DNA of 64,000 bases. Origin: Paraburkholderia sp. SOS3 (GTDB taxonomy: Bacteria; Pseudomonadota; Gammaproteobacteria; Burkholderiales; Burkholderiaceae). The notes under the pieces were generated by a model, which saw only the letters and a program-made list of their open reading frames with translations, searched no databases and had not been told where the DNA came from. Both the position numbers and the translations under genes were made by a program. Positions 1-13,224 of this stretch are shown one piece after another. The DNA lies in NCBI RefSeq assembly GCF_001922345.1, contig NZ_CP018812.1:2108001-2172000 (forward strand), read 5' to 3'. Numbering within the stretch: the first letter of the stretch is position 1; each line of letters starts with the position of its first letter.

Positions 1-810
1 GTCGTTGCCGACAACGGCTCCACGGACGACACCGTGCATAGGGTCGCCATGCTGTTCCCCGACGTCACGATCGTGCAATGCGGCGCCAATCTCGGCGCGG
101 GCGGACGCAACCTCGCGGTCGATTGCGTGCGCACCGATTACGTCGCGTTCTGCGACGACGACACGTGGTGGAAGCCCGGTTCGCTTGCGCACGCCGTACG
201 GTTGCTCGACGCGTATCCGCAGGTCGGCATACTGAACGCGCGTATCGAAGTCGGCGAAGCGCGCGAAACGGATCCGATCTCGACCCTGATGCAGCACAGT
301 CCCCTCGATGCGACAGGCCTGCCGGGCCCATCGCTGGTCGGCTACATGGCGGGTGCGTCGGTCATGCGCACAGCGATGTTCCTCCAGATCGGCGGCTACG
401 ACGCGCGCTACTTTATCGGCGGCGAAGAGGAGCGCGTGGCGCTCGACGTGCTCGCCGCGGGGCACGCCATCGTGTACTGCGCGGCATGCGCGATCGCGCA
501 TCATCCTTCGCCGTTGCGCGATAGCGCGCTACGTCGGCGGATGCTCGCGCGTAACGCCGCATGGACTGCATGGCAAAGGCTGGCCGTGAGCGACGCATGC
601 CGTGCCACGGCCCGCGCAATCGAATGCTTCCGCAAGGAAGGAACCCTGTGGCAGGACGGTTTCGCCCTGTTGCGCGGTCTGCGTTGGGCGCTGCGCGAAC
701 GCCGCCGCGTACCCGAACGCGTCGCGGCAATGCTCGCGGAAGTCAGGCTCGATGCGCGCGCGCCACATCGCGAATCGTTGCGATCAGAACTGCCGCAGCG
801 ACAGGTTTAG
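1..810 (+). CDS. Glycosyltransferase family 2 (5' end outside window)
   Basis: The reading frame is already open at base 1, so the start lies upstream. The visible 269 residues begin inside a GT-A nucleotide-sugar fold (VVADNGSTDDT) and carry the acidic metal-binding stretch FCDDDTWW near residue 50. GGYDARYFIGGEEE follows near residue 130, matching the acceptor/ED region of GT2 enzymes. No membrane segment is visible in this part. It probably transfers a sugar in the cytosol to a surface glycan. The last 68 bp overlap the 3' end of the convergent ABC fusion gene, so the two transcripts run into each other. Family is confident; donor and acceptor are unknown. Confidence 0.85.
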   Translation, partial: VVADNGSTDDTVHRVAMLFPDVTIVQCGANLGAGGRNLAVDCVRTDYVAFCDDDTWWKPGSLAHAVRLLDAYPQVGILNARIEVGEARETDPISTLMQHSPLDATGLPGPSLVGYMAGASVMRTAMFLQIGGYDARYFIGGEEERVALDVLAAGHAIVYCAACAIAHHPSPLRDSALRRRMLARNAAWTAWQRLAVSDACRATARAIECFRKEGTLWQDGFALLRGLRWALRERRRVPERVAAMLAEVRLDARAPHRESLRSELPQRQV

Positions 811-3580
811 TCAGATGCGCCGCAAACCCGTCGTGTAGCGCACGCGCAGCGTCACCGGCGGCCGGTTCCGTGTAACCGGTCAGCGCGATCGCCGGCAAGC
901 GCTCGCCGCCGGCGAGCGGATATTGCGCTTCGAGATCGCGTATGCGTTCGAGCACGCGGTAACCGTCCTCGTTACCGAGCACGATATCGCAGAGCAATAC
1001 TTGCGGCCATGCGTGTCTCGGGATGTCGGCCAGACGCTGCAACGCTTCGTCACCGGAAGAAGCAAGCAGCACATGCGCGCCGCTCGCGCCGAGCACTGCT
1101 TCGAGCGCGTCACGCGCTTCTTCCTGATCGTCGAGCGCGAGCACGGTCAGCCCGGCGAGCGGCTCGTCGAGCCGGGCTTGAACCGGCGCGGCAGCCGGCA
1201 TCGCAGCCGGCATTGACTGGCCGCTGCTGCCCGTTTGGCGGCCCGCAGCCGCGTCCGAGGCGTCATTCGAATGTGCCGCAACACCGCCGGCTTGCGCTTC
1301 GACATCGAGTGTCGCCGTCACGACGCGTGTATCCGCCGTCGCGGCGTCGACCACCGGCGCAAGCGGAATCACCGCGGCGTACGCGACGCGCGTGCCGACC
1401 TGCGTCGCGGTGAAGCGGCCCCCCAATGCGGAAAGCTTCGCCTCGATGCGCCGCGCGGCCTCTTCGGGCATCTCGCCGGATCGCTCGTGCGCGCCCGATA
1501 CGCAGAGCCACGCATGATTCGCGCGCCGCTCGACCCGCAGCTCGACGGTCTCTCCCGCGTGCGCGTGCCCGATCTCGTTGCGGCACAGCGACGCGGTAAT
1601 CTGCATGAGATCGAGCCGATTGCCCATCGCGCACAACTCGCCGTCGGGCATCGACACATGCCAGCGAATGCCGCGGCGCGCGATTTCGTCGCGCAGATCG
1701 TCGCCGACCGCGGCAACCAGCGGACCGAGCTCAACTGCCTGCGCAGACACCTTGCGCTGCATATGCTCGAGTTCGCCCTGCTGCCATTGCAGCGCCCACA
1801 TCTTCGCGTAGACGCCGTCGCGCGAGAGCAGATCGTCGTGCGCGCCCTGCTCGACGATGCGGCCATGTTCCATGACGAGAATCCAGTCGGCGTCCACGAC
1901 GGTCGACAGCCGGTGCGCGATCGCAATCGACGTGCGCCCTTGCGCGAGCCGGTTCAGCTCGGCCTGGATCGCGCGCTCCGAGCGCGTGTCGAGCGCCGAC
2001 GTCGCTTCGTCGAAAACGATGATGCGCGGATTCTTCAGAATCGCGCGCGCGATCGCAATACGCTGACGCTCGCCGCCCGAGATCCGCAAACCGCGTTCGC
2101 CGACGCGCGTATCGTAATGATCGGGCAGGCGCTCGATAAACTCGTCGAGCTGCGCCGCGCGCGCGGCGCGCACGATATCGGCGCGCGTCGCATCGGGCCG
2201 GCCGTACGCGATGTTGTAGGCGATCGTATCGTTGAACAACACGGTGTCCTGCGGGACGATGCCGATCGCTTCGCGCACGCTCTTTTGCGTGACCTCGCGC
2301 AGGTCCTGGCCGTCGATGCTCACGCGGCCCGCGGCGGGCTGATAAAGCCGGAACAGCAGCCGCACGAGCGTCGATTTGCCCGAGCCGCTGCCGCCGACCA
2401 CTGCAAGACGGTGTCCCGCATGCACGCGAAAATGCACGTCGTGCAGCACGGGCCGCGACGCGTCGTACGCGAAGCCGACATGCGCGAACTCGATGGCGCC
2501 GTCGGTGACGACGAGCGGTCGCGCTCGAGGCAAGTCGACATCTTCGCCTTGCACGCCCCGCGCCGTGAGAATTCTGAACATCCGCTCGACGTTCACCCTC
2601 GCGTCGTTTGTCTCGCGAAACACAAAGCCAAGCGTATTGAGCGGCATGCAGACCTGAATGATGTACGCGTTCACGAGCACGAGATCGCCGACCGTCATGC
2701 GTCCGAGCAGCACATACTGAACGGCGATCAGCAGCATCGCGGCGATGCCGGCCGCGATCACACCGCTTTGCCCGACGTGCAGTGTCGTGAGTGCGCGCTG
2801 GTTCGCGATGCGCGCGTCGACCCACTGGTCGAGCACGTCGGTCAGGCGCCGCGTTTCGACGTCTTCGGTCGCGAAGAATTTGACCGTGTCGTAATTGAGC
2901 AGGCTGTCGACGAGCCGCGCATCGGACTGCGCCTCGAGCGCATTGACACGCCGCTGCACGACCAGTCGCCGCCGCGTGAACACATAGGTATAGATCGCAT
3001 AGCAGACGAAGGTGGCTGCGATAACCGCCGTAAAACCCCACGAATAGCCGCGCGCGATGATGACGACGATCGTCGCGATCTCGACGAAGGTCGGCACGAT
3101 CGCGAAGATCGCGGTGCCAAGCAGGAAGCCGATGCCGTCGGCGCCCTTCTGAACGTCGCGCACGACTGTGCCCGTCTCCCGCTGTGCGTGGAAACGCGCG
3201 CCAAGCCGATGCAGGTGCGCAAAGGTCCGTTCGGTGAACGACGCGACCGTTCGCTGGGTGACGACGCTGAACACGACATCGCGCGCTTCATTGAGCGCAT
3301 CGGCAAGAAAGCGCATCAGCGCGTACGCGAGCACGAGAAAGACCGGCAGCAACGCGAGCGACACCGGATGCCCGAGTTCGTCGACGATCTGCCTGAGCAC
3401 GAGCGGCATGGCGACCGCGGCGAATTTGCCGACGATCATCAACGCAAACGACGCAAGCGTGATGCCGCGGTAAGCGAGCAGCGCGTGCCACAGATCGGCC
3501 GCGATGCGCCTACGCATCTGCCTGCTGCTTTTCCCGCCGATTTCCTGCGAGTGGTCTGGCCGAAAGTCGGTTGAGCTCAT
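743..3580 (-). CDS. ABC exporter fused to degenerate kinase ATPase and receiver domain
   Basis: This is a 945-residue protein if started at the ATG at 3580; a GTG two codons upstream is also open. Residues 25-330 form a six-helix ABC exporter membrane domain. Residues 355-590 are an ATM1/HMT1-like nucleotide-binding domain with Walker A GGSGSGKS (396-403), signature ISGGERQR (500-507), Walker B IIVFDEAT and the H-loop IAHRL. Residues 605-745 resemble a histidine-kinase HATPase, but the N-box and the G-boxes are degenerate (CRNEIGH, SGAHERSG), ending in GGRFTATQVGTRVAYAAVIPL-like strands. An Ala/Ser-rich linker leads to a receiver domain (810-940) with the acidic pair D817/D818, phosphoacceptor D865 in LLCDIVLG, and K925 in HLTKP. 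Exporters normally end near residue 600, so about 340 residues are extra. The substrate is unknown. Confidence 0.88.
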   Translation of the reverse strand: MSSTDFRPDHSQEIGGKSSRQMRRRIAADLWHALLAYRGITLASFALMIVGKFAAVAMPLVLRQIVDELGHPVSLALLPVFLVLAYALMRFLADALNEARDVVFSVVTQRTVASFTERTFAHLHRLGARFHAQRETGTVVRDVQKGADGIGFLLGTAIFAIVPTFVEIATIVVIIARGYSWGFTAVIAATFVCYAIYTYVFTRRRLVVQRRVNALEAQSDARLVDSLLNYDTVKFFATEDVETRRLTDVLDQWVDARIANQRALTTLHVGQSGVIAAGIAAMLLIAVQYVLLGRMTVGDLVLVNAYIIQVCMPLNTLGFVFRETNDARVNVERMFRILTARGVQGEDVDLPRARPLVVTDGAIEFAHVGFAYDASRPVLHDVHFRVHAGHRLAVVGGSGSGKSTLVRLLFRLYQPAAGRVSIDGQDLREVTQKSVREAIGIVPQDTVLFNDTIAYNIAYGRPDATRADIVRAARAAQLDEFIERLPDHYDTRVGERGLRISGGERQRIAIARAILKNPRIIVFDEATSALDTRSERAIQAELNRLAQGRTSIAIAHRLSTVVDADWILVMEHGRIVEQGAHDDLLSRDGVYAKMWALQWQQGELEHMQRKVSAQAVELGPLVAAVGDDLRDEIARRGIRWHVSMPDGELCAMGNRLDLMQITASLCRNEIGHAHAGETVELRVERRANHAWLCVSGAHERSGEMPEEAARRIEAKLSALGGRFTATQVGTRVAYAAVIPLAPVVDAATADTRVVTATLDVEAQAGGVAAHSNDASDAAAGRQTGSSGQSMPAAMPAAAPVQARLDEPLAGLTVLALDDQEEARDALEAVLGASGAHVLLASSGDEALQRLADIPRHAWPQVLLCDIVLGNEDGYRVLERIRDLEAQYPLAGGERLPAIALTGYTEPAAGDAARALHDGFAAHLTKPVAAAVLIATIRDVARAHRA

Positions 3581-3937
3581 CTGCACGGTCCGGTCGCGTG
3601 ATCACAAAACGTTTTCCGCACGCGAGCGAGATTCGGTCCCGGCGCGCCGCGAGGCCGCCACCAGGCGAGCTTTATCCGGGACGCGGCCCGAAGCGGCGTC
3701 GCAACACTGGCTCTTCGCCGCCCCGCCTTTTACACGTGCCGTGTAAATCAGGGAACGCCACAGCACTTCGAAAAAACGCTCACGGCGAAAAAACCATGCG
3801 TGCGTTGGCGTTCGTTGGAAATGCCGCACTCATCGTTGGGCACATCGGATGCTGAAACCACTGCATGCGCTGCTTGCCGCCATCATGCCCCGGCCGTCGC
3901 CGGACATCGCCTGAACATAAACCAAGAGGGAACCCCA
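3581..3937. promoter_or_regulatory. Intergenic region between ABC fusion and GT4 genes with inverted repeat 3729-3747
   Basis: These 357 bp separate two divergently read genes and hold no convincing ORF. The one clear element is a perfect inverted repeat with 8-bp arms, TTTACACG at 3729-3736 and CGTGTAAA at 3740-3747, around a 3-bp centre. Its form is that of a dimeric repressor operator. It lies about 190 bp upstream of the GT4 start and about 150 bp upstream of the ABC start, so it could serve either gene. No -10/-35 pair could be assigned with confidence. Confidence 0.45.
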
Positions 3938-5236
3938 ATGAAGATCGCCATGATCAGCGAACACGCGTCGCCGCTCGCTCTTGCCGGCGGCGTCGATAGC
4001 GGCGGACAGAACATCTACGTTGCCAACGTTGCGCGGCAACTGCACCGCGCAGGCCATGAGGTCGACGTGTTCACGCGGCGCGACCGGTCGCTGTTACCGC
4101 TGGTGTCCGAAATGGACGGTATTCGGATCATCAATGTGCCCGCGGGTCCGCCGCGGCAACTCGCGAAGGAACGCCTGCTGCCGTATATGGACGAGTTTGC
4201 CGATTTCCTCGTGTCGTTCTTCAGGAACGAGCGCCGCCCGTACGATTTGATCCACGCGAATTTCTTCATGTCGGGCAAGGTCGCGCTGCAGGTGAAACGC
4301 GCGCTGAACCTTCCGGTGGTCATGACGTTCCACGCGCTAGGCCGCGTGCGGCGTATTCACCAGGGTAATGACGATGGTTTTCCTGACGAACGGTTTGCGA
4401 TTGAAGACGACCTCGTGCGTCACTCCGATGTCGTCATTGCCGAGTGCCCTCAGGACGAAATCGATCTGATCGATCTGTATGATGCGGATCCCGAACGAAT
4501 CGAAATCGTACCGTGCGGCTTCGACGTCGACGAATTGCAGCCCGTCGCGAGGCGCGAGGCCCGCGCAACGCTCGGCTGGCCGCAGGACGAATTCATCGTG
4601 CTGCAACTGGGCCGGCTCGTGCAGCGCAAAGGCATCGACAACGTGATTCGCGGCATCGGCGCCTTGAAACGCGATCATGGCGTCGCTGCACGTCTTTATA
4701 TCGTGGGCGGCAATTCCGAGTCGCCCAACGAAATCGCAACGCCTGAAATCGCGCGACTGCGCGGCATCGCCGTTCAGGAGCAGGTTGCGGCCCAGACGAC
4801 TTTCGTCGGCCGGCGCGGCCGTTCCCATCTGAGCCTCTTCTACAGCGCGGCGGACGTGTTCGTGACGACGCCGTGGTACGAGCCGTTCGGCATTACGCCC
4901 GTCGAAGCGATGGCGTGCGGCACGCCGGTGATCGGCGCCGACGTCGGCGGCATCCGCTATTCGGTCCGCGACGGCGCGACGGGCTGGCTCGTACCGCCGC
5001 GCGACCCGGCCGCGCTCGCGGCGCGGCTCGCGCACCTGCATGCGAACCCGGCGCGCGCGCGGCAGATGGGCGAGGCCGGACTGGCCCGCGCGCAGAGCGA
5101 ATTTACATGGGAAGGCGTCGCGCGATCGCTGGAACACGTGTACCGCCGCGTCGCGCGGCTGCCGCAGCCGCGCGAGCGCGACGAGGCAATCGCTGCGCGC
5201 AGTGCGCGCTCCGCTGCAGGCGGGGCTTTCGGCTAG
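3938..5236 (+). CDS. Glycosyltransferase family 4 (GT-B fold)
   Basis: The 432-residue protein opens with MKIAMISEHASPLALAGGVDSGG, typical of the Gly-rich N-terminal loop of retaining GT4 enzymes. The acceptor domain spans about residues 1-185. The C-terminal donor domain has LGRLVQRKGID and the E-x7-E motif in EPFGITPVEAMACGTP. An in-frame ATG lies 138 bp upstream, but the start at 3938 has an AGAGGG ribosome site (3925-3930) and aligns with the family. Sucrose-synthase-like and MSMEG_0565-like GT4 proteins share the N-terminal sequence style. It is the first plus-strand gene after the ABC fusion and probably begins the glycan operon. The donor sugar is unknown. Confidence 0.88.
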   Translation: MKIAMISEHASPLALAGGVDSGGQNIYVANVARQLHRAGHEVDVFTRRDRSLLPLVSEMDGIRIINVPAGPPRQLAKERLLPYMDEFADFLVSFFRNERRPYDLIHANFFMSGKVALQVKRALNLPVVMTFHALGRVRRIHQGNDDGFPDERFAIEDDLVRHSDVVIAECPQDEIDLIDLYDADPERIEIVPCGFDVDELQPVARREARATLGWPQDEFIVLQLGRLVQRKGIDNVIRGIGALKRDHGVAARLYIVGGNSESPNEIATPEIARLRGIAVQEQVAAQTTFVGRRGRSHLSLFYSAADVFVTTPWYEPFGITPVEAMACGTPVIGADVGGIRYSVRDGATGWLVPPRDPAALAARLAHLHANPARARQMGEAGLARAQSEFTWEGVARSLEHVYRRVARLPQPRERDEAIAARSARSAAGGAFG

Positions 5237-5327: not shown

Positions 5328-6077
5328 ATGTCCTCCATTGAAAGTCCGCCTTCCGGGCCGGCCCTGGCCCGCGCGCATGACGGCGCGGTCGATCCCCCAC
5401 TGGCAGCCCTGCCTGAGCGTCAGGCTCCGCGCGCGGTCTTTCTCGACAAGGACGGTACGGTGCTCGACGACGTGCCGTATAACGTCGACCCGCGCAAGAT
5501 GCGCTTTGCGCCCGGTGCGCGCGCGGCGCTCGAGCTGCTCGCCGCGTATCCGTACAGGTTGATCGTCGTGAGCAACCAGGGGGGCGTGGCGCAAGGCCGT
5601 TTTGCGATCGGCGCGCTCGATGCGGTCGAGCATCAATTGCGCGTGATGTTCGCGTCGTGCGGCGCCTCGCTCGACGCGTTCTACTCGTGCCCACACGATC
5701 CGCGCGGACATGTCGTGCCCTACGCATCCGCGTGCGCGTGCCGCAAGCCCGCACCCGGCATGCTGCTGCAGGCCGCGCACGATCACGGCATCGACTTGCG
5801 CGCATCGTGGCTCGTCGGCGACATCCTCGACGACGTGGAAGCCGGCAATCGCGCCGGCTGCCGCACGATTCTGCTCGATAACGGCAACGAAACCGAATGG
5901 CGCGACGGGCCGCGGCGCAGACCGTTCGCGTATGCGAACGATCTGCATGGCGCCGCGCGGCTCATTGCTTGCGAGTACGAGCTTTCGTGTGCGAACGGCG
6001 CAGCCCCCGGCAAAGCCGGTTCAGGCACGCCCACCGTCTGCGCCGGTAACGCCGCTCATGAGGGGGCGACGTCATGA
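5328..6077 (+). CDS. gmhB: D-glycero-D-manno-heptose 1,7-bisphosphate 7-phosphatase-like HAD enzyme
   Basis: The 249-residue protein matches the GmhB branch of the HAD superfamily. It has FLDKDGTVLDD with nucleophile D40 and acid/base D42, SNQGG near 82-86, a zinc-site pattern C121-x-H123...C136-x-C138, catalytic K140 and VGDILDD near 163-169. GmhB removes the 7-phosphate from heptose bisphosphate on the route to nucleotide-activated heptose. A short N-terminal extension (about 35 residues) and a C-terminal tail of about 45 residues exceed the E. coli protein length. The stop overlaps the next start as ATGA, which implies translational coupling to a GT9 gene. Because the core LPS gmhB is usually elsewhere, this may be a dedicated copy. 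Confidence 0.82.
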   Translation: MSSIESPPSGPALARAHDGAVDPPLAALPERQAPRAVFLDKDGTVLDDVPYNVDPRKMRFAPGARAALELLAAYPYRLIVVSNQGGVAQGRFAIGALDAVEHQLRVMFASCGASLDAFYSCPHDPRGHVVPYASACACRKPAPGMLLQAAHDHGIDLRASWLVGDILDDVEAGNRAGCRTILLDNGNETEWRDGPRRRPFAYANDLHGAARLIACEYELSCANGAAPGKAGSGTPTVCAGNAAHEGATS

Positions 6078-7273
6078 AAAGCCTCTCCGCGCTCGCGAAG
6101 CCGCTCACGGCGCACGCGCGTCACGCCGCCGCAAAACCGCTCGAGGCCTGGGGCGCCGAAATCAAGCGCATTCTGTGCGTGCGTACCGACAATCTCGGCG
6201 ACGTCCTGATGACGACGCCGGCGCTTCACGCATTGCGCAGCGCATCACCGGGCCGGCACCTGACCTTGCTGACCTCGCCGGCGGGCTGCGCGCTTGCGCC
6301 GCTCCTGCCCGACGTGGACGACGCGATTTGCTACGACGCGCCATGGGCGGGCCACAACCGGTCGCGAACCGTCGACGCGGACCTCGCGATGCGCGCGCTG
6401 CTGGAAAAGCGCGGCTTCGACGCGGCGGCGATCTTCACCGTCTACAGTCAGAACCCGCTTGGCGCAGCCACGCTCTGCTATCTCTCCGGCATCGGGCGAA
6501 GGCTCGCCCGATGCCGCGAGAACCCATATGCGCTGCTGACCGACTGGGTGCCCGAACACGAACCCGAGCAGGGCACGCAACACGAGGTCCTGCGCCAGCT
6601 TTCGCTCGTCGATGCAATCGGCGCGCGCACGAGCGACACGCAAATGCGCATGAGTGTCACCGATGCCGGGCGGACCGCGCTCGATGTCGCACTCGACGCG
6701 CGCGGCATCGACGCGACGCAGCCGTTTATCGTCATGCATCCGGGCGCGACGGCCGCGTCGCGCCGCTACCCGGCCGAGCGCTTCGGCAGCGCCGCGGCGC
6801 AGCTGATCCGCAAGACCGGTATGAACGTGCTCGTCACCGGCAGCGCCGGCGAAGCCGCGTTGATGCACACCTTGCGCGCATCGGCGCCGCCCGAGGCGCG
6901 CCCGTTCATCCACGAACTGACCGACGCGCTCGATCTCGGCGCGTTCGCGGCATTGATCGAACGCGCGCGCGTGCTGGTTTCGAACAACAGCGGCCCCGTG
7001 CACATCGCTTCGGCACTGGGCACGCCGGTCGTCGACCTGTACGCACTGACAAATCCGCAGCACGCGCCATGGCAAACGCCGCATCGCGTGCTATTTCACG
7101 ACGTCGAATGCCGCTGGTGTTATCGCAGCGTGTGTCCCTACGGGCATCACGCTTGCCTGCGCGGCGTCGAAACCGGGGACGTCGTCGCCGCGACGCTCGA
7201 GCTGTTAGCCGAAACCCGCTCGCGCGCGGCACCGCAACCCGCAGACGACGAAGCGCGGCAAGTCGCGCAATAG
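6074..7273 (+). CDS. Glycosyltransferase family 9, heptosyltransferase-like
   Basis: The 399-residue protein has the GT9 N-terminal signature RTDNLGDVLMTTPAL (37-51) and the donor-domain motif MHPGATAASRRYP. SNNSGPVHIASALGTP follows, which binds the nucleotide-heptose diphosphate in family members. A Cys-rich C-terminal stretch (CRWCYRSVCPYGHHACL) is shared with the second GT9 in this cluster. It is expected to be a cytosolic or membrane-peripheral enzyme transferring heptose to a lipid or glycan acceptor. It is coupled to the GmhB-like gene by a 4-bp overlap, which supports a heptose donor. The exact acceptor cannot be read from sequence. Confidence 0.87.
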   Translation: MKSLSALAKPLTAHARHAAAKPLEAWGAEIKRILCVRTDNLGDVLMTTPALHALRSASPGRHLTLLTSPAGCALAPLLPDVDDAICYDAPWAGHNRSRTVDADLAMRALLEKRGFDAAAIFTVYSQNPLGAATLCYLSGIGRRLARCRENPYALLTDWVPEHEPEQGTQHEVLRQLSLVDAIGARTSDTQMRMSVTDAGRTALDVALDARGIDATQPFIVMHPGATAASRRYPAERFGSAAAQLIRKTGMNVLVTGSAGEAALMHTLRASAPPEARPFIHELTDALDLGAFAALIERARVLVSNNSGPVHIASALGTPVVDLYALTNPQHAPWQTPHRVLFHDVECRWCYRSVCPYGHHACLRGVETGDVVAATLELLAETRSRAAPQPADDEARQVAQ

Positions 7274-7320: not shown

Positions 7321-9078
7321 ATGTACACACTCGGAATCAATGCGGTCTATCACGACAGCGCTGCCGCGCTGGTACGCGACGGCGTCGTGCTGGCGGCCGC
7401 CGAAGACGAACGATTTACGCACGTGAAGCACGCGAAGCGGCCCGTGCCGTTTTCAACGTGGCAATTGCCGTTCGATGCGATCGACTACTGCCTCTCGAGC
7501 GCAGGCATCACGCTGAAGGACGTCGACCACGTCGCGTACTCGTACGACCCGACGCTCTTTTCGGGCATGCCGAAAACGCCGGGCGCCACGATCGCGTTGC
7601 CGTTCGACCCGGCGCGGCAGCCGGCGGCGAATCCGTCCGAATCGCCGTGGGATCCTCTATTTCTCAGCTATATCGCCAACGCCAAAGCGCAATTGCTCGA
7701 CGGTGCGCCGCATCATCTGGCCAGACGCTTTCGCGGTGTCGACCGCGACGGCGGCTTCAAATGGCATTTCGTCGATCACCACCTTTCGCATGAAGCAAGC
7801 GCGTTTCTCGCGAGCCCGTTCGACGATTGCGCGGTGCTGACGATGGACGGGCGCGGCGAAGGCGTGACGACGAGTATGGGACGCTTCGTCGACGGCTCGT
7901 ACGAACGGCTGCGCCAGGTCGAACTGCCGCATTCGCTCGGATTGCTTTACGAAGCGGTAACGGGCTGGCTCGGCTTTCTGCACTCGTCGGACGAGTACAA
8001 GGTCATGGCGCTTGCATCGTTCGGCAAGCCGCGCTTCGCCGATCAGTTCCGCGAGATCGTCAGGGTGCATCAGGACGGCAGTTATACGGTCGATGCGCCG
8101 CGGCTCATCGAACGGTTCGGGCCCGCGCGCGAGCGAGGCGGTCCGCTCGAACAGCGTCATTACGACATCGCGAGTTCGCTGCAATGCGTGCTCGAAGAAA
8201 CCGTGCTGCAACTCGCTCACTGGCTGCACCGGCAAACGGGTCTGCCGCGGCTGTGCATGGCGGGCGGCGTGGCGCTGAACTGCGTGATGAATTCGAAGGT
8301 GCGCGACCAGGGTCCGTTCGAAGACGTATGGGTGCAGCCGGCCGCCGGCGATGCGGGCACCGCGCTCGGCGCCGCATTGTGGACCGACTACCGGCAACGC
8401 GGCGACCGGCAACGGCACTGGACGATGGATCACGCGTATCTCGGGCCTCGGTATGCCGACGACGAAGTCGAACAGTTCTTGAAATGGTCGAAAATTCCGT
8501 ACCGCCGCGCACGCGACATTGCCGACGAAGCAGCCGCGATGCTCGCCGCGGGCAAGGTGCTCGGCTGGTATCAGGGGCGCACCGAGTTCGGTCCGCGCGC
8601 ACTCGGCTCGCGCTCGATTCTCGCCTCGCCGATCGACCCCGGCATGCAGGCGCGCCTGAACGAAATCAAGGACCGCGAGGATTTCCGGCCGGTGGCGCCC
8701 GTCGTGATGGAGGAACATGCGGCCGACTGGTTCGTCGGCGCCACGCGTGCGCCGTTCATGTTGTTTATCTTCGACGTGCGCGAAGAGAAAGCGGACCGGA
8801 TTCCTGCCGTGCGGCACGTGGACGGCACTGCACGCGTGCAGACGATCAACCGCGATCAACACGCGCTCTACTACGATCTGCTCGACGCGTTTTATCGGCG
8901 AACCGGCGTGCCCGTGCTCGTCAATACCTCCTTTAATACGCGCGGCGAACCGATGGTCAACTCCCCGCGCGATGCGGTCGAATCGTTCTGGACGTCGCCG
9001 CTCGATGCGCTGGTGATCGGATCGTTCATCGTCGAGAAAGTCGGTTCGGCGTCGGTTTGCGCAGAGGCCGTGCGATGA
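7321..9078 (+). CDS. Carbamoyltransferase (NodU/CmcH/TobZ family)
   Basis: This is a 585-residue two-domain O-carbamoyltransferase. The N-terminal Kae1-like domain starts MYTLGINAVYHDSAAAL and carries the iron-binding pattern VDHHLSHEASAF. The C-terminal YrdC-like domain contains GRTEFGPRALGSRSIL, the family signature. Such enzymes form carbamoyl-adenylate from carbamoyl phosphate and ATP and pass the carbamoyl group to a sugar hydroxyl. A CGGAG ribosome site lies at 7308-7312; the long open frame upstream of 7321 is out-of-frame read-through of the GT9 gene. The stop overlaps the next start (ATGA). It suggests that the glycan or glycoside made here is carbamoylated. Confidence 0.92.
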   Translation: MYTLGINAVYHDSAAALVRDGVVLAAAEDERFTHVKHAKRPVPFSTWQLPFDAIDYCLSSAGITLKDVDHVAYSYDPTLFSGMPKTPGATIALPFDPARQPAANPSESPWDPLFLSYIANAKAQLLDGAPHHLARRFRGVDRDGGFKWHFVDHHLSHEASAFLASPFDDCAVLTMDGRGEGVTTSMGRFVDGSYERLRQVELPHSLGLLYEAVTGWLGFLHSSDEYKVMALASFGKPRFADQFREIVRVHQDGSYTVDAPRLIERFGPARERGGPLEQRHYDIASSLQCVLEETVLQLAHWLHRQTGLPRLCMAGGVALNCVMNSKVRDQGPFEDVWVQPAAGDAGTALGAALWTDYRQRGDRQRHWTMDHAYLGPRYADDEVEQFLKWSKIPYRRARDIADEAAAMLAAGKVLGWYQGRTEFGPRALGSRSILASPIDPGMQARLNEIKDREDFRPVAPVVMEEHAADWFVGATRAPFMLFIFDVREEKADRIPAVRHVDGTARVQTINRDQHALYYDLLDAFYRRTGVPVLVNTSFNTRGEPMVNSPRDAVESFWTSPLDALVIGSFIVEKVGSASVCAEAVR

Positions 9079-10106
9079 GCACGAGCAGCCGCGTGGGTTC
9101 TGTCGACGCGTCGGCGCCGGCGCCAGCGCCGGACATATCGGTCGTCGTGCCGACGTACCGGCGCCCCGCGATGCTCGAGACCTGCCTCGATGCCGTCGCC
9201 GCGCAACAGCTCGATTGCACGCGCTATGAAATCGTCGTCTGCGACGACGGACCCGAAGACGTCGCCACCCGCGCGTTCGTCGACCGCTTCGCGGCACGCC
9301 AGGCCGCACGCGGCCTCGCGGTTCGCTATGTGCCGGTCACCGCCACGCAAGGTCCCGCGGCTGCGCGCAATGCGGGCTGGCGCGCGGCGCGCGCGCCGCT
9401 CGTTGCCTTCACCGACGACGACACGATCCCTGACCCGCGATGGCTCGCGGCGGGCCTCGCGGCGACAGCGCGCGCGAACGCCGACGCCGTTTCGGGTCGC
9501 ATCGTGATGCCGTTGCCCGATCACCCGAGCGACTACGAACTCGACGCGAGCGGCCTCTCGTGCGCCGAATTCGCCACCGCGAACGTCTTTGTGCGCCGCG
9601 CGGCGCTCGAAGCGACGGGCGGCTTCGACGAGCGCTTCACCGCCGCATGGCGCGAGGATTCCGACCTGCAATTCATGCTGCTGAACGCCGGTTGCCGGAT
9701 CGTGCGCGCCGACGACGCGATCGTCGTTCATCCGGTACGACCCGCGCGTTGGGGCGTGAGCCTGCATCAGCAAAAAAAGAGCTTTTTCGAAGCGCTGCTG
9801 TTCCGCAAGCATCCGGCGATGTACCGGCAACGCATCGACGCCCGCCCGCCGCTGCGCTACTACGCGATCGTCTGCAGCGCGGTGTGTGGGCTACTGGCCG
9901 GGCTGGCAGGCTTCGGTGCGCTCGCGTGGTGCGCGCTGCTCATATGGGCGTGTCTCACCGCCGGCTTCTGCATGCAACGCCTGCGCCACACGCGGCGCGA
10001 CTGGCCGCATCTGGCCGAAATGGTGTGGACGTCGCTGCTGATTCCGTTTCTATCGGTGTACTGGCGTCTGTACGGCGCGTTTCGTTTCAAGGTGATGTTC
10101 CTATGA
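9075..10106 (+). CDS. Glycosyltransferase family 2 with C-terminal membrane anchor
   Basis: The 343-residue protein has a GT-A domain beginning ISVVVPTYRRPAML. FTDDDTIPDP provides the metal-binding DxD-like motif, and FDERFTAAWREDSDLQF provides the ED catalytic region. After the catalytic domain come one or two hydrophobic segments (about 265-310: YYAIVCSAVCGLLAGLAGF and LAWCALLIWACLTAGF), anchoring it to the inner membrane. Its start overlaps the carbamoyltransferase stop and its stop overlaps the following GT9 start. Three consecutive genes are therefore likely translated in concert. Donor and acceptor are unknown. Confidence 0.88.
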   Translation: MSTSSRVGSVDASAPAPAPDISVVVPTYRRPAMLETCLDAVAAQQLDCTRYEIVVCDDGPEDVATRAFVDRFAARQAARGLAVRYVPVTATQGPAAARNAGWRAARAPLVAFTDDDTIPDPRWLAAGLAATARANADAVSGRIVMPLPDHPSDYELDASGLSCAEFATANVFVRRAALEATGGFDERFTAAWREDSDLQFMLLNAGCRIVRADDAIVVHPVRPARWGVSLHQQKKSFFEALLFRKHPAMYRQRIDARPPLRYYAIVCSAVCGLLAGLAGFGALAWCALLIWACLTAGFCMQRLRHTRRDWPHLAEMVWTSLLIPFLSVYWRLYGAFRFKVMFL

Positions 10107-11272
10107 GCACATCGATCGAATCATTGGAGTGTGTCACAGCGCGTCCCGCGGGGCCTGCGCGGATTGTGATTTTCCGTGCGCTTCAACTGGGCGACATGCT
10201 GTGCAGCGTGCCCGCGTTGCGCGCGCTGCGCCGCGCGGTGCCGCATGCGCATATCGCCCTGATCGGCCTGCCGTGGGCGAAAAGCTTCGTCGAACGCTAT
10301 CGCGGTCTGGTCGACGAACTGATCGTGTTTCCGGGCGCACGAGGCTTTCCGGAACAGCAAGAAGACGACGCCGCCCTGCCCGGCTTCATCGCCGCGATGC
10401 GCGCGCGCCGCTTCGATCTGGCGATCCAGATGCACGGCAGCGGCGGCATCGCGAACGACATCGTCGGCCAGTTCGGCGCGCGCGCGTATGCAGGCTTCGT
10501 CCAGCCCGGCGAAGCGCGCGACGGTTGCTTCATTGCGTGGCCCGAGTCCTTGCCCGAACCGCACCGTTACCTCGCGCTGACCGATGCACTCGGCGCACCC
10601 GCCGATGGCGATGCACTCGCGTTCGAACTGACACCGCAAGACCTCGCCGAACACGCGGCTCTCGTCGCCTTGCACCGCATAGCGTGCGAACGCCTCGTGC
10701 TCGTCCATCCGGGCGCGCAATTGCCGTCGCGGCGCTGGCCTGTCGAACGGTTTGCCGAAGTCGCCAACGCACTCGCCTCGGACGGCTGGCGCGTCGCGAT
10801 CACGGGCACCGCATCGGAAATCGAACTGTCGGCCCGTCTGCTCGGCACGATGGTTGCACCGGCGCTGCATCTCGTGGGCGCGACCTCGCTCGGCGCACTC
10901 GCCGCGCTCGTGCGCGACGCGCGGCTCGTCGTCTGTAACGACACCGGCATTTCGCACATTGCGGCCGCGATGCAAACGCCAAGCGTCGTCATCGCATCGG
11001 GCAGCGACACGCGCCGCTGGGCCCCGCTCGACCGGCAACGGCATCGTGTGCTTGCCGACTATCCGGCGTGCCGGCCGTGCGCGTTCCGCGAGTGCCCATA
11101 TGGACACGAGTGTGCGTTGAACGTGAGCGTCGAAAGCGTGATCGAGGCCGCGCACGCGCAGCTTGCACTCGATTCCGCAACGGTCCACGCGGCTGCCGGC
11201 CGCGCGGCGAGGCCGCGCATCGCCGATGCGGCTTACTCTATCGCACGCTGGGAGGCGTCCCATGTCCGCTAA
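10103..11272 (+). CDS. Glycosyltransferase family 9, second heptosyltransferase-like copy
   Basis: The 389-residue GT9 protein has FRALQLGDMLCSVPALRAL near residues 24-42, VHPGAQLPSRRWP in the donor domain and CNDTGISHIAAAMQTP near 280. It also shares the Cys-rich C-terminal CRPCAFRECPYGHECAL with the GT9 at 6074. Each of the two GT9 genes sits directly behind a different partner (GmhB-like, then GT2), so they may add successive heptose residues. The first codons overlap the upstream GT2 stop. The last 11 bp overlap the next GT gene. Heptose as the donor is inferred from family and neighbours. Confidence 0.86.
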   Translation: MSTSIESLECVTARPAGPARIVIFRALQLGDMLCSVPALRALRRAVPHAHIALIGLPWAKSFVERYRGLVDELIVFPGARGFPEQQEDDAALPGFIAAMRARRFDLAIQMHGSGGIANDIVGQFGARAYAGFVQPGEARDGCFIAWPESLPEPHRYLALTDALGAPADGDALAFELTPQDLAEHAALVALHRIACERLVLVHPGAQLPSRRWPVERFAEVANALASDGWRVAITGTASEIELSARLLGTMVAPALHLVGATSLGALAALVRDARLVVCNDTGISHIAAAMQTPSVVIASGSDTRRWAPLDRQRHRVLADYPACRPCAFRECPYGHECALNVSVESVIEAAHAQLALDSATVHAAAGRAARPRIADAAYSIARWEASHVR

Positions 11273-12215
11273 TCGACGCCTGCGCATTCTCACCTGGCAT
11301 GTGCACGGCAACTACCTGTATTACCTGACGCAGGTTCCGCACGACTTTTATCTCGTCACGAAGCCTGGCCACCCGCCCGGGTACGCGGGCCGCAACGGCT
11401 CGTTGCCGTGGGGCGACAACGTGCATGAAGTGCCGATCGACGCAGTCGCGTCGCAGCATTTCGACGTCGTGCTCTATCAGCATCGCGTGCATTGGGAACA
11501 CGATCGCGAGCATGTGCTGTCGGCGCAGCAGCGGCGCCTGCCGCGCATCTATATCGAGCACGACCCGCCGCTCGACAATCCGTACGCGCAGAAACATTGG
11601 GTCGACGACCCGCAGACGCTCGTCGTGCACGTCACGCATTTCAACGAGCTCGCGTGGGACTGCGGCGCGACGCCGACGTGCGTGATCGAACACGGCGTCG
11701 TGGTGCCGAAAAACGTGCAGTACAGCGGCGAACTCGAGCGCGGCATCGTCGTCGTCAACCACCTCGCGCAGCGCGGCCGACGCCTCGGCGCGGACCTGTT
11801 CGATACGATGCGCGAGCGCGTGCCGCTCGACCTCGTCGGCATGGATGCGGCGAAAAGCGGCGGCATCGGCGAAATACCGAACCTCGAACTGGCTGCGTTT
11901 ACCGCGCGCTACCGCTTCTTTTTCAATCCGATCCGCTGGACGAGCCTTGGCCTCGCCATCGTCGAAGCAATGACGATCGGCATGCCGATCGTCGGCTTCG
12001 CGACGACCGAACTCGCCACCGTCATTCGCAACGGCGAAAACGGCTACGTGCATACGAACCGCGAGTTGCTCGTCGAGGCGATGCACAGCCTGCTCGGCGA
12101 TCCGGCGCACGCGCGTTCGCTCGGTCATGCGGCGCGGCGCACCGCACGCGAACGTTTTCATATCGACCGTTTCGTGCGCGACTGGCTCGCGGCGCTATCG
12201 CGCGTGAGCGGTTGA
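11262..12215 (+). CDS. Glycosyltransferase, GT4/GT1-like GT-B fold
   Basis: The 317-residue protein begins [21 protein letters not shown]. Its C-terminal half contains [19 protein letters not shown], a recognisable E-x7-E type nucleotide-sugar site of GT4-like enzymes, then a nucleotide-contact region [10 protein letters not shown]. The N-terminal half is shorter than in typical GT4 proteins of 370-400 residues. A GGGAGG-like ribosome site lies inside the end of the preceding GT9 gene, and the genes overlap by 11 bp. It probably completes assembly of the same oligosaccharide. Substrates are unknown. Confidence 0.8.
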
Positions 12216-12240
12216 GCACGATGATCAAGGGAGCAGCATC

Positions 12241-13224
12241 ATGAGAGAACTGACACGCAAACGGATTCTCGTCACGGGCGGCGCCGGCTTTCTCGGCTCG
12301 CATCTATGCGAACGCCTCGTGACGCAGGGCCACGACGTGCTGTGCGTGGACAACTTCTATACGGGAACCCGGGACAACGTCGCACACCTGCTCGACTGCG
12401 CGAACTTCGAGATGATGCGCCATGACGTGACGTTCCCGCTCTATGTCGAAGTGGACGAGATCTATAACCTCGCATGCCCCGCCTCTCCGGTCCACTATCA
12501 GCACGACCCCGTGCAGACGACCAAAACGAGCGTGCACGGCGCGATCAATATGCTGGGGCTCGCCAAGCGCGTGAAGGCGAAAATCTTCCAGGCGTCGACG
12601 AGCGAAGTGTACGGCGACGCGCGCGTGCACCCGCAAACGGAGAACTATTGGGGCAACGTGAATCCGATCGGCCCGCGCTCGTGCTACGACGAAGGCAAGC
12701 GCTGTGCGGAGACGCTCTTCATGGATTACCGGCGGCAGCACGGTCTCGACATTCGCATCGCGCGAATCTTCAATACGTATGGGCCGCGCATGCATCCGGC
12801 CGACGGCCGCGTCGTATCGAACTTCATGGTGCAGGCGCTCGGCGGCAAACCGCTGACCGTTTACGGAGACGGCTCGCAAACGCGCTCGTTCTGCTACGTG
12901 GACGACATGATCGATGCATTCGTGCGTCTGATGAACCTGCGCTCCGATCCCGGCTGCCCCGTCAATCTCGGTAACCCATACGAAGTGTCGATGCTCGAGA
13001 TCGCGCAGCGCACCAAAGCGATCACCGGATCGACCTCGCGAATCGAGTTCCTGCCGCTGCCCGTGGACGACCCGTGTCGACGCCAGCCCGATATTTCGCT
13101 CGCTACGCGCCTTTTCGGCTGGACGCCGCACACGCCGCTCGAGCAGGGCCTGGGCAAAACGGCCGCTTATTTCGCATCGGTCATCGGCAGCGCGCGCACA
13201 GCCACAGCCGAGACGCCCATGTAG
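12241..13224 (+). CDS. NAD-dependent epimerase/dehydratase, UDP-glucuronate decarboxylase-like
   Basis: The 327-residue extended SDR has the NAD-binding GGAGFLGS (13-20), STSEVYG (119-125) and the catalytic pair Y149-x3-K153 in [21 protein letters not shown] (75-87) and [11 protein letters not shown] are characteristic of UDP-glucuronate decarboxylases (UXS), which convert UDP-glucuronate to UDP-xylose. TDP-glucose dehydratases are close relatives and cannot be fully excluded. It ends the glycan operon, 25 bp after the last glycosyltransferase, so a pentose may be one component of the product. It is convergent with the TPM gene, with 6 bp between the stops. Confidence 0.85.

What the first reader, a model, noticed from the sequence alone, without database searches (positions are those of the whole stretch)
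743..3580. ABC exporter fused to a degenerate sensor ATPase and an intact receiver domain
One open frame joins an ATM1/HMT1-like exporter, a kinase-type ATPase remnant lacking its ATP-binding boxes, and a receiver domain with all phosphorylation residues (D817, D818, D865, K925). This implies transport gated by a two-component phosphorelay, with an unknown partner kinase. I know of no described exporter with this layout. The convergent glycan genes may provide the substrate context.
Basis: partly seen in the sequence, partly recalled or inferred. Interest (0 to 1): 0.78.

Follow-up and report, generated by a model that had tools for sequence, protein, structure and literature searches.

The report
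Export pump with built-in phospho-switch
A Paraburkholderia membrane export pump carries on the same protein chain a kinase-type domain that has lost its ATP-binding motifs and an intact phosphate-receiving switch domain, which would likely turn the pump up or down, and relatives of this gene lie beside the same sugar-assembly genes whose product it is predicted to export.

The parts
743..3580 (-). CDS of the fused protein, 945 aa: Atm1-like ABC exporter, pseudo-HATPase, receiver
   Evidence: Open frame; Pfam domains; ABC and REC on one chain in 188 homologues
2639..3454 (-). ABC_membrane (transmembrane region), residues 43-314; remodelled glutathione-pocket positions Q209 and H268 lie in it, T316 just after it
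   Evidence: Pfam; nearest solved relative NaAtm1 4mrn, E 1.7e-146, residues 23-600; pocket comparison
1997..2446 (-). ABC_tran (nucleotide-binding domain), residues 379-528; Walker A K402, signature, Walker B E525; switch H556 just downstream
   Evidence: Pfam; K402, E525, H556 identical in 188 of 188 family members
1346..1771 (-). pseudo-HATPase (kinase CA domain), residues 604-745, joined to the NBD by one helix (590-612 in the model)
   Evidence: AF2 pLDDT 88; PDB matches to kinase CA domains; boxes lost; helix in full-length model
1157..1345 (-). variable, low-confidence linker, residues 746-808
   Evidence: 748-803 pLDDT <50; mean identity 19% to the homologues compared
773..1144 (-). 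receiver (REC) domain, residues 813-936
   Evidence: Pfam Response_reg E 1.5e-13; genome search match at the same bases
986..988 (-). codon of phospho-acceptor D865
   Evidence: D in 188 of 188 family members
1..810 (+). GT2 glycosyltransferase of the cluster (starts about 100 bases before the window), convergent, 68 nt overlap
   Evidence: Pfam Glycos_transf_2
3935..5236 (+). GT4 glycosyltransferase, divergent from the exporter gene
   Evidence: Pfam
5328..6077 (+). GmhB-like HAD phosphatase (heptose bisphosphate phosphatase-like)
   Evidence: Pfam Hydrolase_like; NCBIfam GmhB-type hits below their cut-offs, HAD-IIIA domain model above
6074..7273 (+). GT9 (heptosyltransferase family)
   Evidence: Pfam PF01075
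7321..9078 (+). NodU-type carbamoyltransferase, used as cluster marker CARB
   Evidence: Pfam Carbam_trans_N and _C; co-occurrence
9075..10106 (+). GT2 glycosyltransferase
   Evidence: Pfam
10103..11272 (+). second GT9 (heptosyltransferase family)
   Evidence: Pfam
11262..12215 (+). GT4 glycosyltransferase
   Evidence: Pfam
12241..13224 (+). NAD-dependent sugar epimerase/dehydratase (SDR)
   Evidence: Pfam Epimerase, GDP_Man_Dehyd

Best explanation
The 945-residue protein is an Atm1-like ABC half-transporter whose chain continues into a histidine-kinase-type CA domain without its ATP-binding boxes and a receiver domain with all phosphorylation residues, and phosphorylation of that receiver at D865 by a separate histidine kinase would likely switch its predicted ATP-driven export of a product that probably comes from the linked heptosyl/carbamoyl glycan cluster. 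Shown: the layout, intact ABC ATPase motifs, the loss of the kinase boxes, the conserved receiver residues, the glycan linkage and the altered pocket. Inferred: the protein works as a homodimer; the pseudo-CA domain, attached by a helix to the NBD, is a non-catalytic coupling element; REC~P docks on it or on the NBD and changes NBD closure; the substrate is the cluster's heptose-containing, carbamoylated product or its lipid-linked precursor. Likely steps: a kinase in trans phosphorylates D865, REC changes shape, REC and pseudo-CA release (or clamp) the NBD dimer, and export is matched to a signal after translation.
For: Phospho-Asp 188/188, Lys 180/188, first acidic Asp 185/188, second 180/188, switch Thr/Ser 185/188. 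Catalytic NBD residues 188/188. Pseudo-HATPase: 0 of 186 with N plus DxGxG, fold kept. Tail under purifying selection: median dN/dS 0.24 (pseudo-HATPase) and 0.28 (REC) over 293 non-independent pairs. In one search no exporter of this clade without its tail appeared among 34 same-genus genomes (11 with a whole fusion, 1 broken). The 42 genus genomes with the fusion (1 of them broken) all hold the carbamoyltransferase on the same contig within 5.7-9.1 kb; 0 of 97 genomes without it show the fusion; order sample 7 of 7 within 10 of 399. Pocket: R-to-Q in 180 of 181 and N-to-H in 177 of 181 scorable fused forms, R and N in 15 of 15 unfused paralogues. Precedents: kinase BceS lowers the ATPase of its partner ABC transporter (PMC10314905, abstract and section 10 read); a phosphorylated single-domain receiver activates a polysaccharide enzyme post-translationally (PMC12802240, abstract read).
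Against: No phosphorylation, transport or substrate data. No dedicated partner kinase found: the kinase near this gene (800 aa, 5.6 kb away) and the 1,371-aa kinase near others have close relatives in genomes without the exporter. The cluster marker exists without a whole exporter in 6 of 47 genus genomes: one broken (G008), one truncated (G128), two remnants (G132, G157), and nothing in the stretch fetched in G148 and G159. Three other genomes show most of the cluster but no ABC exporter of this clade in the 30-40 kb fetched (G849, G369, G201). So the exporter is dispensable or replaceable. A second Caballeronia temeraria copy has no cluster gene within 9 kb. The tail is less conserved than the ABC part: mean identity to the window protein 47% (pseudo-HATPase) and 61% (REC) against 74-83%. 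A few members lack K or the second acidic residue.
Confidence: 0.5

Rival explanations
1. Reverse direction: the exporter is the sensor. Substrate flux through the pump moves the pseudo-CA/REC tail, which docks on a histidine kinase (as an inactive partner or as phosphate sink) and so reports transport load, in the manner of Bce modules or of RetS-GacS.
For: A CA-like domain next to an NBD could be a kinase pairing surface; Foldseek matches include BceS in BceAB-S (8g3a) and VIA-align matches include RetS-GacS (7n0e). REC with no DNA-binding output fits a sink.
Against: No DHp helix pair, the part by which RetS and GacS pair (recalled), is recognised: no HisKA hit with the limit at E 10. No dedicated neighbouring kinase. 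Fold matches show ancestry only.
Confidence: 0.2
2. The tail is a structural or assembly module (dimer stabilisation or scaffolding for the glycosyltransferases) and phosphorylation is no longer used.
For: The kinase boxes are lost in every member examined; the tail is the least conserved folded part (47% and 61% mean identity).
Against: Phospho-Asp 188/188 and Lys 180/188 would be unlikely without use of the phosphorylation site.
Confidence: 0.13
3. It is an ordinary Atm1/HMT1-like glutathione-conjugate or metal exporter with an extra regulatory tail, and the glycan genes are neighbours without shared function.
For: Nearest solved structure is NaAtm1; pocket R206, Q272, G319 and R323 are kept; one public name says ATM1-type heavy metal exporter (P0124).
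Against: R210 and N269, conserved glutathione-site residues in the literature (PMC9000953, PMC6424863, passages read), are replaced in nearly all fused forms but in 0 of 15 unfused paralogues. The host keeps a separate unfused paralogue. Linkage to the glycan cluster holds in several families of the order.
Confidence: 0.15
4. Artefact: a missed frameshift or assembly join produced the fusion.
For: None found.
Against: 41 genus genomes (own included) with open frames of 896-1101 aa, 188 homologues with ABC and REC on one chain, one clade in the sampled tree.
Confidence: 0.01

Closest known systems
Atm1/ABCB7/HMT1-type exporters (NaAtm1, 4mrn)
   Same: Half-transporter matched over residues 23-600, catalytic NBD residues, part of the glutathione pocket
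   Different: R210Q, N269H, M317T in the pocket (NaAtm1 numbers); a tail of about 340 residues with pseudo-HATPase and REC; glycan gene context
Hybrid histidine kinases (HisKA-HATPase-REC)
   Same: CA fold followed by linker and REC in the same order; the listed non-family hits of the tail are kinases, most of them with HisKA, HATPase_c and REC
   Different: No HisKA/DHp, no phospho-His, N and G1 boxes altered, G2 lost and the ATP lid missing or cut back; the NBD-linked helix stands where DHp would be
Bce modules (BceAB-BceS)
   Same: An ABC transporter physically coupled to a kinase-type protein; BceS lowers BceAB ATPase (PMC10314905)
   Different: Bce uses a separate kinase and another transporter class (class recalled); here one chain, pseudo-CA and REC
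Response regulators with non-DNA outputs (EpsW acting on EpsZ as a glycan example, PMC12802240)
   Same: A REC domain controlling polysaccharide machinery after translation
   Different: EpsW is a free single-domain regulator acting on a phosphoglycosyl transferase; here REC is covalently part of an exporter

Membership tests
Atm1/ABCB7-type exporter | TMD plus NBD half-transporter with catalytic ABC motifs | tested here: met
   K402, E525, H556 in 188 of 188
Atm1/ABCB7-type exporter | Conserved glutathione-site residues R206, R210, N269, Q272, G319, R323 (NaAtm1 numbers recalled; placed by me on the alignment; their spacing agrees with the residue lists in PMC9000953 and PMC6424863) | tested here: not met
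   R210 is Q and N269 is H here and in nearly all fused forms; the other four are kept. So not filed as a glutathione exporter
Atm1/ABCB7-type exporter | Transports glutathione derivatives | not testable with these tools
   Needs transport assay
Histidine kinase / hybrid kinase | CA (HATPase) fold | tested here: met
   Pfam HATPase_c over cut-off in two distant members
Histidine kinase / hybrid kinase | N, G1 and G2 ATP-binding boxes | tested here: not met
   0 of 186 with N plus DxGxG; G2 GGG triplet in none of the 16 commonest patterns listed; G2 box absent in the 15 rows aligned
Histidine kinase / hybrid kinase | HisKA/DHp with phospho-accepting His | tested here: not met
   No PF00512 match with the limit at E 10; PF00512 not in the precomputed Pfam lists of the 188
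Response regulator | REC with acidic pair, phospho-Asp, Thr/Ser, Lys | tested here: met
Response regulator | Is phosphorylated and changes an output | not testable with these tools
   Biochemistry needed
Bce module | Complete partner kinase beside a Bce-type transporter (class recalled) | tested here: not met
   Transporter matches PF00664; no kinase frame in the stretch fetched in 28 of 42 loci

The most novel reading that the evidence does not exclude
An ABC exporter is itself the output of a response regulator: the CA-REC end of a hybrid histidine kinase was joined to a transporter's NBD, the CA domain died and became the coupling piece, and the receiver now gates export of a glycan cluster's product, so that export is controlled by a phosphorelay directly on the pump, without transcription.
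Probability: 0.42. Interest if true: 0.82.

Novelty: new variant of a known kind. Interest (0 to 1): 0.64.

Why it matters
Two-component signalling is mostly known to act through transcription or second messengers. A receiver welded to an ABC exporter, kept through several families of Burkholderiales together with one glycan cluster, would be a direct phospho-gate on a transporter and a case where a dead kinase domain was kept as a mechanical part. It makes 'can a phosphorelay control an ABC pump directly?' a question for one purified protein, and it marks an uncharacterised, heptose-related glycan locus in Paraburkholderia.

Tried and rejected
Artefact or frameshift: rejected by 41 open frames of 896-1101 aa in the genus. 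HATPase relation: could have failed (Pfam gave none for the window protein) but was supported by fold and by distant members. Members with intact boxes: sought among 186, none found. Partner kinase: 16 kinase frames in 14 of 42 loci against 6.9 expected from this genome's HisKA density (Poisson P 0.002), but 8 belong to one kinase family (about 50-95% identity), so the loci are not independent, and the stretches fetched reach further on one side than on the other. That 1,371-aa kinase also has 84-86% relatives in genomes without the exporter (G020, G076). The 800-aa kinase near the window gene (PAS domains, a sub-cut-off HisKA, HATPase_c and two REC) has a match of 58% identity or more over most of its length in 18 of 21 genomes with the exporter against 6 of 21 without (my reading; Fisher P 0.0004), confounded by phylogeny; left as a lead. 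Alternative exporter in exporter-less clusters: of ten neighbouring proteins scanned (8 from G849, G201 and G369, 2 from G241) none is a transporter; many neighbours were not scanned; one is an HldE-like kinase/nucleotidyltransferase in G849. Literature: nine searches, six of them pairing receiver or REC terms with ABC transporter terms, listed no paper that describes this layout, judged by titles and abstract starts; subscription papers are mostly not in that library. Rows dropped before counts: P0043 and P0058 (no NBD signature) from the box count; P0073-P0088 and P0205-P0208 (kinases) from the family; 141 of the 261 hits were not listed and not examined; in both protein searches only about 8,000 candidates were scored.

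Full report
What is there. The interval holds one minus-strand gene, 743-3580, 945 aa. Pfam finds the ABC transmembrane region (43-314), the ABC ATPase (379-528) and a receiver (813-936), and no domain match in the stretch between ATPase and receiver that bears on the tail. The nearest solved structure is NaAtm1, matched over residues 23-600.

The receiver. In 188 family members phospho-Asp is present in 188, Lys in 180 (R in 6, E in 2), the first acidic Asp in 185, the second in 180, Thr/Ser in 185, and the following Pro in 188. One fetched orthologue, L013 (G005), has Thr for Lys. Median dN/dS over 293 pairs is 0.17 (TMD), 0.11 (NBD), 0.24 (pseudo-HATPase) and 0.28 (REC); the linker could be measured in only 4 pairs (0.97). 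The pairs share sequences and are not independent; in the 14 closest pairs REC ranges from 0.01 to 0.44. Mean identity to the window protein is 74% (TMD), 83% (NBD), 47% (pseudo-HATPase), 19% (linker) and 61% (REC).

Distribution. A search with the tail gave 88 hits: 72 fused exporters, the named ones from Paraburkholderia, Caballeronia, Burkholderia glumae and Chitinasiproducens, and 16 kinases. A search from a distant member gave 261 hits, 120 listed: 116 fused exporters, with names from Bordetella, Achromobacter, Pollutimonas, Pigmentiphaga, Piscinibacter, Rhizobacter, Roseateles, Rhodocyclaceae and others and one MAG labelled Actinomycetota, and 4 kinases. In a tree of 47 ABC parts (10 + 22 fused, 15 unfused paralogues) the 32 fused form one side of a branch (SH-aLRT 100; quick method, and the program warned of long branches at P0174 and P0194).

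Glycan linkage. In the window the gene sits inside GT2 / [exporter, opposite strand] / GT4 / GmhB-like HAD / GT9 / carbamoyltransferase / GT2 / GT9 / GT4 / SDR. The tail was found in 42 of 144 genus genomes, own included, 41 whole and one broken (G008), by my reading of the strong matches (E 1.8e-36 or better). The carbamoyltransferase was found in 47 of 144 at E 1e-150 or better; all 42 are among the 47, on the same contig, 5.7-9.1 kb apart. In the other five, G128 holds a truncated N-terminal part, G132 and G157 hold remnants, and G148 and G159 hold nothing in the stretch fetched. In a sample of 399 genomes of the order, own included, 7 have the fusion (my reading: matches from model position 1, 279 bits or more) and 10 the carbamoyltransferase at E 1e-190 or better; all 7 are among the 10, and the neighbourhoods of the six outside the genus contain cluster genes (in G494 only the carbamoyltransferase and a GT2 in the stretch fetched). 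The third order genome without the fusion, G284, shows only the carbamoyltransferase, a GT2 and the SDR. Related genomes share history, so the Fisher P values (4e-31 and 4e-13) overstate independence. Against a strict link: most of the cluster occurs without this exporter in G849, G369 and G201, and Caballeronia temeraria has a second fused gene without cluster genes within 9 kb (L097).

Pocket. PMC9000953 and PMC6424863 (passages read) list glutathione-site residues conserved in Atm1 relatives. Placed on NaAtm1 (numbers recalled) through the alignment, R206, Q272, G319 and R323 are kept here but R210 is Q and N269 is H. In the fused family Q occurs in 180 of 181 and H in 177 of 181 scorable members; the 15 unfused Burkholderiales paralogues have R and N in all. 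This points to a changed substrate, not to which one.

Mechanism. The tail cannot be an autonomous kinase (no DHp, no ATP boxes), so REC must be served in trans, or by a small phosphodonor. With the ABC ATPase motifs intact and the pseudo-CA domain attached to the NBD by a helix, the simplest working model is REC~P acting through the pseudo-CA domain on NBD closure. A kinase that lowers the ATPase of its ABC partner is known from BceS-BceAB (PMC10314905, abstract and section 10 read), and a phosphorylated receiver that activates polysaccharide synthesis after translation is known from EpsW-EpsZ (PMC12802240, abstract read). The sign of the switch (on or off), the partner kinase and the substrate are open.

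Novelty. Each domain is known; the combination as a conserved family tied to a glycan locus I did not find described in nine searches of the open-access library (listed under Tried and rejected). Hence a new variant of a known kind. It works like a response regulator with a transporter as output; it is not filed as an Atm1 glutathione exporter or as a histidine kinase, since defining features were tested and not met.

Noticed in passing
L033 (G008:C8) 9844-12307; contig length as in L106: The exporter gene is broken into four frames in a symbiont Paraburkholderia MAG (isolate Vsou) while the glycan genes beside it stay open; described only.
   Followed up: partly
L097 6334-9894: Caballeronia temeraria holds a second, whole fused exporter (frame 1187 aa) with no cluster gene within 9 kb.
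   Followed up: partly
L011 3241-4491 (G024): This member carries a long Asn/Gly/Ser-rich insert inside the receiver, between the switch Thr and the Lys.
   Followed up: no
L066 11869-13413 (G849): An exporter-less copy of the cluster outside the order has an HldE-like PfkB + nucleotidyltransferase gene next to the GT4, which fits heptose chemistry for the cluster.
   Followed up: partly
L021 10730-13129 (about 4.9-7.3 kb before the window start): Hybrid kinase with PAS, HisKA (sub-cut-off), HATPase_c and two REC, 5.6 kb from the exporter gene; relatives lie about 14-48 kb from the exporter in 11 of the 21 exporter genomes searched (coordinates compared by eye). Candidate partner.
   Followed up: partly
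P0091, P0092, P0096-P0099: Six members, four of them named Bordetella, have Arg for the conserved receiver Lys, so their receiver may switch differently.
   Followed up: no
L109: P. fynbosensis has, besides its other copy (L110), a second remnant of the pseudo-HATPase/receiver tail elsewhere.
   Followed up: no
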